A stretch of DNA of 64,000 nt from Synechococcales cyanobacterium S06 (GTDB lineage Bacteria > Cyanobacteriota > Cyanobacteriia > Cyanobacteriales > JAABRE01): the NCBI GenBank assembly GCA_011391125.1, contig JAABRE010000021.1, positions 1 through 64,000 on the forward strand, given 5' to 3'. A model generated the notes under the pieces. It was not told where the DNA came from and did no database searches. It was given only the letters and a program-made list of their open reading frames with translations. Numbering within the stretch: position 1 is the stretch's first letter; each line of letters opens with the position of its first letter. Positions 703-62,312 of the stretch are shown here, one piece after another. The translations under genes and the position numbers were made by a program.

Positions 703-830
703 TATAGTGATTCCAATTAAGATTAAAACAGTTGAAAAATAGGTTCGTAGTTGCGCTTTAGCGCTTCTTAGGACTAAAGTCCAACAACAAACTAAAAACT
801 TTTGTTTAATTTTTATTTGGAATTACTATA
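703..830. mobile_element. MITE family A, copy 1 (128 bp including TA flanks)
   Basis: Terminal inverted repeats TATAGTGATTCCAA / TTGGAATTACTATA (13/14). Interior nearly identical to 62016..62143, also 128 bp. Confidence 0.8.
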
Positions 831-36399: not shown

Positions 36400-37389
36400 C
36401 TAATCTCCTGATTGTTTTTGAATAACTCCCTTAGTCATTACCTGAGTTTCTAGGGGAATTAAAGAGTCTGTAGTTTGATAACCAGTTTGACCTTTAGCAT
36501 TACCCGTCAAGAAGATTTTTACATCTTGATAACTGTCGGGAGTTGAATTGCTATCCTGATCTACAAAACTCACACAAGCAAAAAATCCCCGACTATAATC
36601 ATCATCATCAGCTGAATCATAAGTAGGACTGGGATAAATGTTCTCATCAGGGTTAACAATACAATCAGGAAGAGAAGGCAAACTAGAAGGGTCATTGCTA
36701 TAAACAAAATCGACTAAAGGTTCAGTTTGGCTGGCTAAAGAACCCAGAGCTTGTTGATTTGTGCCATCAAAAAAAGGCCAGTCACCGAAACTCGTTTCTC
36801 GACGAGGATCAGCATAACCGGGGTTTTTTGTCAAGCTATTGGTATTACTATATTTGCGTAATTCATAACGTTCAAGTCGGGATTGGCCTTTCCAAGATTT
36901 AGGATCAGAATCATCGGTGGATTGTAAATAAACAACTAAAGTATAAGTATTACGTTCAATTTTTAAACTATTACATTCCTCTTTTAAATCTTCATCGGCA
37001 AAACTAGCACAATCATTAGGAAGATTACCGGTGTTATCATAGGGAACAGATTCGATTTTCCAGAAAGCTAAAACCGGTTTTTTAGTATTAGGAAAAGATG
37101 GTAAATAGGGAATTATTTTATTATCTAATTGTTCACCCTTATAAATATAAACCGCTTCCCGTAATTCTTCTGCGATATAATTTAAGGCCGTTTTCATCTG
37201 TTGCTGACTTTTGCTACGAGCAACTTCTTTTTGGGAATCACTAATAACGTTAGTTGTCAAGGACAAAATACTACCACTAACGATAAGTCCTATAAAAGCG
37301 GCCAATAGTAACTCAGGTAAAGTAAAGCCACTTTGATGATATTTTTGGGTGTAAATTTTTCGGGTTTTTACTAACATATTGAGTCCCAT
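36400..37389 (-). CDS. Pseudopilin (PulJ/HpsC-like)
   Basis: Prepilin motif QSGFTLPELLLAAFIGLIVSGSILSL. Confidence 0.78.
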   Translation of the reverse strand: MGLNMLVKTRKIYTQKYHQSGFTLPELLLAAFIGLIVSGSILSLTTNVISDSQKEVARSKSQQQMKTALNYIAEELREAVYIYKGEQLDNKIIPYLPSFPNTKKPVLAFWKIESVPYDNTGNLPNDCASFADEDLKEECNSLKIERNTYTLVVYLQSTDDSDPKSWKGQSRLERYELRKYSNTNSLTKNPGYADPRRETSFGDWPFFDGTNQQALGSLASQTEPLVDFVYSNDPSSLPSLPDCIVNPDENIYPSPTYDSADDDDYSRGFFACVSFVDQDSNSTPDSYQDVKIFLTGNAKGQTGYQTTDSLIPLETQVMTKGVIQKQSGD

Positions 37390-53945: not shown

Positions 53946-53985
53946 AATAAAGGTCTGTTGTTGCGCTTTAGCGCTCCCTAAAATA
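53946..53985. repeat. Truncated MITE A core fragment
   Basis: ggtctgttgttgcgctttagcgctccctaaaataaagac shares TTGCGCTTTAGCGCT with MITE A. Confidence 0.5.
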
Positions 53986-61438: not shown

Positions 61439-62020
61439 ATGACCACAATTAGTGTAATAGAAAAGGTAGAATTATCAGGTATAAGTTGGGAAACCTACGA
61501 AAATTTATCCAGGGAATTAGATAAAAGTCGTCGCTTACGTTTAAGCTATTATTATGGAGATTTAGAAATTATGACTCCTTCCCCTGAACATGAAATTTAT
61601 AAAGCAGTTGTTGGCCGTTTTGTTGATACTTTAGCGGAGGAATTAGATGTTTATATTTATCCCTTAGAATCGACTACTTTTAAGAAATTTAAACAAATTA
61701 GTGCCGAACCTGATAAGTGTTTTTATCTGAAAAATAGGAAAGCAGTTCAAGGAAAAAAAAGATTAGATGAAAACGATCCTCCTCCAGATTTAGTAATAGA
61801 AATTGATGTTACCAGTAGTTCACAAAAAAGGTTAGAAATTTACGCAGAAATGAGATTTCCTGAAATATGGCGTTATGATCTAAGATTATTTAAAATCTAT
61901 CATTTAGTAGGCCAGAAATATCAAGAATTTCCCGAAAGTTTGGCATTTCCTAATATTCCTTTATTAGAAATTGCTACTTTTTTAAAACAAGTGGAAACCA
62001 CCGAATATTTAGATTTATAG
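61439..62020 (+). CDS. Uma2 family (DUF820) putative endonuclease, truncated by MITE A
   Basis: RRLRLSYYYGDLEIMTPSPEHE...DPPPDLVIEIDVTSSSQKRLEIYAEMRFPEIWRYD. Stop TAG falls inside the MITE terminal repeat. Confidence 0.9.
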   Translation: MTTISVIEKVELSGISWETYENLSRELDKSRRLRLSYYYGDLEIMTPSPEHEIYKAVVGRFVDTLAEELDVYIYPLESTTFKKFKQISAEPDKCFYLKNRKAVQGKKRLDENDPPPDLVIEIDVTSSSQKRLEIYAEMRFPEIWRYDLRLFKIYHLVGQKYQEFPESLAFPNIPLLEIATFLKQVETTEYLDL

Positions 62021-62143
62021 TAATTTCAATTAAGATTAGAACAGTTAAAAAATAGGTTCGTAGTTGCGCTTTAGCGCTTCTTAGGACTAAAGTCCAACAA
62101 CAAACTAAAAACTTTTGTTTAATTTTTATTTGGAATTACTATA
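62016..62143. mobile_element. MITE family A, copy 2 (128 bp including TA duplication)
   Basis: TIR TATAGTAATTTCAA / TTGGAATTACTATA; interior nearly identical to 703..830. Confidence 0.88.
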
Positions 62144-62188
62144 GTTCGTTTATTTAGAAACTGGATTAGAACGCAAATTAACAATTAA
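62144..62188 (+). pseudogene. Displaced C-terminal 14 codons of the Uma2 gene
   Basis: GTTCGTTTATTTAGAAACTGGATTAGAACGCAAATTAACAATTAA = VRLFRNWIRTQINN*. Confidence 0.75.
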
Positions 62189-62228
62189 TCTGGTTAAAAT
62201 TATGGTAAAAACTGTTAGAAAATAATTT

Positions 62229-62312
62229 TGTCAATGCGATAATTTTCACGGTCAAAGTTGCGGTATGAAAAATAATTTAACTGTCGATCATCTCATTCCT
62301 TTAGCAAACTAA
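62229..62312 (+). pseudogene. Possible HNH endonuclease remnant
   Basis: Reads CQCDNFHGQSCGMKNNLTVDHLIPLAN*; LTVDHLIPLA resembles the HNH core; frame broken after it. Confidence 0.35.

What the first reader, a model, noticed from the sequence alone, without database searches (positions are those of the whole stretch)
61990..62190. MITE inserted in a Uma2 gene at a TA; exact excision restores the reading frame
The Uma2 ORF ends ...TTEYLDL-TAG, with the stop inside the MITE inverted repeat. Directly after the element the sequence reads VRLFRNWIRTQINN*, a typical Uma2 C-terminal tail. Removing 62018..62143, which leaves one TA, gives GAT TTA GTT CGT, i.e. LDL-VRLFRNWIRTQINN*. This fixes the element ends (TAG...CTA), the TA target duplication and the ancestral protein. 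The TA duplication suggests an IS630/Tc1-mariner-type transposase acting in trans.
Basis: partly seen in the sequence, partly recalled or inferred. Interest (0 to 1): 0.72.

Follow-up and report, generated by a model that had tools for sequence, protein, structure and literature searches.

The report
Mini-transposon split a Uma2 gene
A 124-base mini-transposon, one of about 140 near-identical copies in this cyanobacterium, jumped into the last codons of a Uma2 nuclease-like gene and cut 14 amino acids off the protein; this is a clear but ordinary case of a known kind of event, with the small twist that the element carries a separate palindromic repeat inside it.

Summary
A 124-bp element (62018-62141, TAGTAATTTCAA...TTGGAATTACTA) lies between two TA dinucleotides, and its first three bases give the TAG stop of the Uma2 ORF. 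Removing element plus one TA (126 bp) gives a 207-aa Uma2 protein whose tail (VRLFRNWIRTQINN) aligns with Uma2 proteins of relatives; an FRxW(V/I)R motif is conserved there.

The element is a MITE with roughly 140 copies in this 4.8-Mb cyanobacterial genome. Of 75 copies examined, 71 have TA on both sides. Exact removal also rejoins an Hsp70 and a DUF2887 gene. The same genome holds 946-bp IS630-family elements, related to ISY100 of Synechocystis, with matching left and right ends: the probable transposase source. No intact single-ORF copy was found.

Two refinements. The 'excision' is a reconstruction of the pre-insertion site; no actual excision or orthologous empty site was seen. The MITE core is not IS-derived: it is a dispersed GTAG-type palindromic repeat that also occurs alone. 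Another cyanobacterial genus has MITEs with similar ends around a different palindrome. A similar nesting is published for Anabaena variabilis.

Verdict: real, well explained, a new member of a known kind.

The parts
61439..62020 (+). Uma2 family gene, truncated: 193 aa, stop TAG supplied by the element
   Evidence: Pfam PF05685 Uma2, 63 bits, E 3.1e-17; ORF
62016..62017 (.). TA, left copy of the target-site duplication (inside codon TTA)
   Evidence: sequence; 71 of 75 copies have TA on both sides
62018..62141 (+). 124-bp MITE, IS630/ISY100 type, high-copy family; identical to at least six other copies in the genome
62018..62044 (+). left terminal inverted repeat; the family consensus end matches the left end of the genome's IS630 elements at 22-23 of 27 positions
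62115..62141 (-). right terminal inverted repeat; matches the right end of the genome's IS630 elements at 20-22 of 27 positions
62053..62105 (+). core: palindromic-repeat hybrid dimer (GGTTCGTAGTTGCGCTTTAGCGC...GGACTAAAGTCCAACAACAAACT), a repeat that also occurs outside the MITE; edges approximate
   Evidence: 310 hits of GTWGTTGCGCTTTAGCGC in own genome, standalone copies, core-only matches in other cyanobacterial genomes
62142..62143 (.). TA, right copy of the target-site duplication
62144..62188 (+). severed Uma2 C-terminal tail VRLFRNWIRTQINN and its original stop
   Evidence: alignment with Uma2 proteins of relatives
705..828 (+). second copy of the same MITE in the window, TA on both sides, other sub-family (4 differences)
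53957..53974 (+). half of the core palindrome outside any MITE

Best explanation
A 124-bp non-autonomous element (MITE) inserted at a TA 14 codons before the end of a Uma2 gene. The TA was duplicated, and the element's terminal TAG fell in frame, so the gene now stops there and lacks its conserved C-terminal FRxW(I/V)R segment. The MITE has the two ends of an ISY100-like IS630 element present in the same genome and was most probably moved by that transposase by cut-and-paste at TA sites (inferred). Between its ends it carries a dispersed GTAG-type palindromic repeat instead of IS sequence. The insertion looks recent: the copy is identical to at least six others and the rest of the gene is undamaged. 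Shown: ends, TA duplication, copy number, tail homology, partner IS with matching ends. Inferred: mobilisation in trans, direction (insertion into an intact gene), loss of Uma2 function.
For: Exact boundaries and restored frame. Tail: the top Uma2 homologues align to residues 202-207 of the 207-aa restored protein, while the own copy stops near 195; F197, R198 and W200 are kept in 9 of 9 homologues that reach the tail, with V/I at 201. Family: 75 fetched copies, 70 of exactly 124 bp with 1-5 differences from the consensus, 71 of 75 TA/TA, target preference A-N-T-TA-A-N-T; about 144 exact left ends (62+82) against 0 in the control. Independent restorations: exact removal rejoins an Hsp70 domain (Pfam 125-458, junction at 228) and a DUF2887 domain (3-128, junction at 61). 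Partner: DDE_3 transposase genes flanked by TAGTRATTCC ends and TA; full-length copy 946 bp, same as the ISY100 copy on pSYSA; left and right MITE ends each match the corresponding IS end; about 70% DNA identity to ISY100. ISY100 needs only about 24-30 bp of each end plus transposase and targets TA (PMC2170065).
Against: No orthologous empty site: the genus is represented only by this genome. No uninterrupted single-ORF transposase was found; the full-length copies have an A9 run that splits the frame and other copies are truncated at contig ends. Pfam's Uma2 model does not reach the tail, so it neither supports nor contradicts the restoration (62.9 bits restored, 63 truncated).
Confidence: 0.95

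Rival explanations
1. The element is a palindromic repeat (REP-like) spread by a RAYT/IS200-type single-strand mechanism, and the IS630-like ends are incidental.
For: The core is an independent dispersed palindrome of GTAG type.
Against: Boundaries, copy number and TA duplication follow the TAG...CTA ends, not the palindrome; a 77-bp copy without the palindrome still has the ends and TA/TA.
Confidence: 0.02
2. The Uma2 gene naturally ends at LDL-TAG and the downstream open stretch is coincidence.
For: The ORF with the element is a complete 193-aa frame.
Against: The joined tail matches the FRxW(V/I)R tail of Uma2 proteins from many genomes; the stop lies inside the mobile element; exact removal restores other genes too.
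Confidence: 0.01
3. The MITE was moved by a transposase that is now lost or supplied from outside (plasmid, other strain), and the IS630 copies in this genome are dead relatives.
For: No intact single-ORF copy in the assembly; A-run lengths vary 8-10 between copies.
Against: Contigs break inside IS copies, so an intact copy may be missing from the draft. The ISY100 copy on pSYSA read here also has A9 and is 946 bp, whereas the published ISY100 is 947 bp with one 282-aa protein; so one-base variants of this run coexist with functional elements, or slippage may restore the frame.
Confidence: 0.25

Closest known systems
ISY100 (ISTcSa), IS630/Tc1-mariner family, Synechocystis PCC 6803
   Same: Partner IS: length (946/947 bp), TAGT...ACTA ends, TA duplication, DDE transposase, about 70% DNA identity. 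The MITE ends resemble both ISY100 ends.
   Different: The MITE has no transposase and only 124 bp; its internal sequence is a palindromic repeat.
Cyanobacterial MITEs that make pseudogenes (Anabaena sp. 90, PMC3542288; Nezha in Anabaena, cited in PMC10969869)
   Same: High-copy, hairpin-forming, mostly intergenic: 132 of 147 there; here only 6 of 73 lie in an ORF of at least 100 aa, against 47% of control TA sites.
   Different: In Anabaena sp. 90 no matching IS was found ('type II'); here an IS with matching ends is in the same genome.
GTAG-15 REP dimers nested in TATAGGA...TCCTATA palindromes, Anabaena variabilis (PMC3733652)
   Same: A GTAG palindrome dimer sits inside a longer TA-bounded inverted repeat.
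   Different: Different ends and repeat; no partner IS is named in the passages read.

Membership tests
IS630/Tc1-mariner-derived MITE | TA target-site duplication | tested here: met
   71 of 75 copies TA/TA
IS630/Tc1-mariner-derived MITE | terminal inverted repeats shared with an autonomous IS | tested here: met
   left 22-23/27, right 20-22/27 identical to IS630 ends in the same genome
IS630/Tc1-mariner-derived MITE | no coding capacity, short, high copy number | tested here: met
   124 bp, stops in all six frames, about 140 copies
IS630/Tc1-mariner-derived MITE | DDE transposase gene in the partner element | tested here: met
   PF13358 DDE_3 hits over cut-off
IS630/Tc1-mariner-derived MITE | intact, expressed transposase available | tested here: inconclusive
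   only frame-split or truncated copies in the draft assembly
IS630/Tc1-mariner-derived MITE | mobilisation in trans | not testable with these tools
   needs a transposition assay
GTAG-type REP (core of the element) | dispersed palindrome occurring independently | tested here: met
   310 hits in own genome, many outside MITEs; present in other cyanobacteria
GTAG-type REP (core of the element) | unpaired GTAG tag next to the stem | tested here: inconclusive
   GTAG or GTTG precedes the stem, but in dimers it can pair with the partner (sequence; fold)
GTAG-type REP (core of the element) | association with a RAYT transposase gene | not tested
Uma2 | Uma2 domain | tested here: met
   PF05685, 63 bits against cut-off 27
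Uma2 | C-terminal FRxW(V/I)R tail seen in homologues | tested here: met
   met only after removing the element

The most novel reading that the evidence does not exclude
ISY100-type MITEs in cyanobacteria are repeatedly built around GTAG palindromic repeats: this genome (GCGCTTTAGCGC type) and another genus in a different family (GGGGCGCAAGCATTGCGCCCC type) have closely similar MITE ends around different palindromes, so the palindrome may help such MITEs to form or spread.
Probability: 0.3. Interest if true: 0.55.

Novelty: new member of a known kind. Interest (0 to 1): 0.35.

Why it matters
It fixes the exact ends, target and likely transposase source of a high-copy MITE family found in one genome, and gives clean before/after evidence in three genes. 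If the nesting of GTAG palindromes inside IS630 MITEs proves recurrent, it would offer one way by which REP-like repeats spread in cyanobacteria.

Tried and rejected
Orthologous empty site: the genus holds only this genome. Uma2 relatives by genome-contig scan: none confirmed. The MITE by exact ends in 85,462 species genomes: one hit in 'Unicellular cyanobacterium SU3' without TA on both sides, taken as chance or unrelated; none in viral contigs or, by similarity, in plasmids. Rfam: no match. PDB: no Uma2 relative at E 0.001. The joined flanks of a MITE inside another IS630 gene gave no uninterrupted copy in the genome, so that is not an empty site either. Restoration as proof of real excision: rejected, since it shows only the pre-insertion state.

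Full report
Observation. The sequence at 61439-62190 is as described. The Uma2 ORF stops at TAG 62018-62020, the first three bases of a 124-bp element 62018-62141. TA lies on each side. The terminal inverted repeats are 28 nt with 79% complementarity when the flanking TA are counted, and the strand folds with z = -6.7. Removing 126 bp gives a 207-aa Uma2 protein ending LDLVRLFRNWIRTQINN. Because 124 + 2 = 126 is a multiple of three, the insertion itself does not shift the frame; the gene is broken by stops inside the element, which has stops in all six frames.

Tail. A search of 60 relatives with the restored protein found matches in 58; nearly all of the listed homologues align through residues 201-207, while the window's own copy ends near residue 195. 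In the alignment, F, R and W of FRxW are kept in all nine homologues that reach the tail, and V or I follows. The closest homologue (62% identity) reads YLDLIQEFRNWVRSKI against YLDLVRLFRNWIRTQI. The Pfam match ends before the tail, so it is silent on this point.

Family. The own genome (4.81 Mb, 168 contigs) has 114+119 strand hits of the full exact-end pattern (a near-palindromic copy usually hits on both strands) and 144 exact left ends. I fetched 75 distinct copies: 70 are 124 bp, 1-5 differences from consensus, 71 of 75 have TA on both sides, and flanks prefer A-N-T-TA-A-N-T. The Uma2 copy is identical to at least six others, so it belongs to a recently active sub-family. Only 6 of 73 testable copies lie inside an ORF of at least 100 aa, against 47% of control TA sites in the same flanks. 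Exact removal in two other genes rejoins an Hsp70 and a DUF2887 domain across the junction, which independently confirms the boundaries.

Partner element. The genome holds DDE_3 (IS630) transposase genes. Two full-length copies (contigs 63 and 159) have TAGTRATTCCCA ends and TA flanks; the one measured is 946 bp, like the ISY100 copy on plasmid pSYSA of Synechocystis PCC 6803. Other copies with TAGTRATTCCAA ends are cut by contig ends. The MITE left end matches IS left ends at 22-23 of 27 positions and the right end matches IS right ends at 20-22 of 27. Published work shows that ISY100 transposase alone moves a mini-element with 30 bp of each end into TA (PMC2170065); by analogy the MITE should be a substrate of its own IS, but this is inferred. 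The full-length copies carry a run of nine A that splits the frame, as does the pSYSA copy; the published ISY100 is 947 bp with one ORF, and a truncated copy here has ten A. No intact copy was found in the draft.

Core. Between the ends the element is not IS sequence. Its core GTAGTTGCGCTTTAGCGC...GGACTAAAGTCC is a dispersed palindrome with 310 half-site hits in this genome, many standalone, and it occurs without the MITE ends in other cyanobacteria. A 77-bp copy lacks the palindrome and a 155-bp copy has a more perfect one. In 391 genomes of the order the left-end sequence occurs only here and in three genomes of one genus of another family. Several of those elements have TA-flanked MITE ends around a different palindrome, GGGGCGCAAGCATTGCGCCCC. 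A published survey reports GTAG-15 dimers inside TATAGGA...TCCTATA palindromes in Anabaena variabilis (PMC3733652). So the nesting has precedent.

Verdict. 'Exact excision' should be read as reconstruction of the empty site. The finding is a well-resolved new member of a known kind; the recurrent palindrome core is the part that deserves a further look.

Noticed in passing
L010:1418 (G000:C101) and L014:96-219 (G000:C124): An autonomous IS630 end and a MITE copy sit at the same TA with an identical 95-bp left flank inside another IS630-type transposase gene. Shared hot spot, or an assembly effect at contig ends.
   Followed up: partly
G000:C10:2580-2703, C132:26456-26579, C33:20763-20886: Other genes split by the MITE: an Hsp70 homologue, a DUF2887 gene, and a gene cut about 9 codons before its end.
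   Followed up: partly
L013, L012, L096, L152: A run of nine A splits the transposase frame in ISY100-like copies here and in pSYSA; other copies have 8 or 10. Possible slippage control.
   Followed up: no
L205, L206, L207, L211 (G036, G059, G193): Related MITEs in another cyanobacterial genus carry a different palindrome.
   Followed up: partly
L137:706-782 and L110:2838-2992: A 77-bp MITE copy without the palindrome and a 155-bp copy with a more perfect one: possible stages in gain or loss of the core.
   Followed up: partly
G000:C115:21544-21788 (L115): Two MITE copies lie head to tail, overlapping by a few bases at the junction: insertion at or beside another copy's end.
   Followed up: no
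window 62209-62308: Sequence just downstream of the Uma2 gene has an 89% similar stretch at G000:C117:26834-26933; function unclear.
   Followed up: no
window 36839-36850 and 37232-37243: Further IS630-like end sequences with one mismatch.
   Followed up: no
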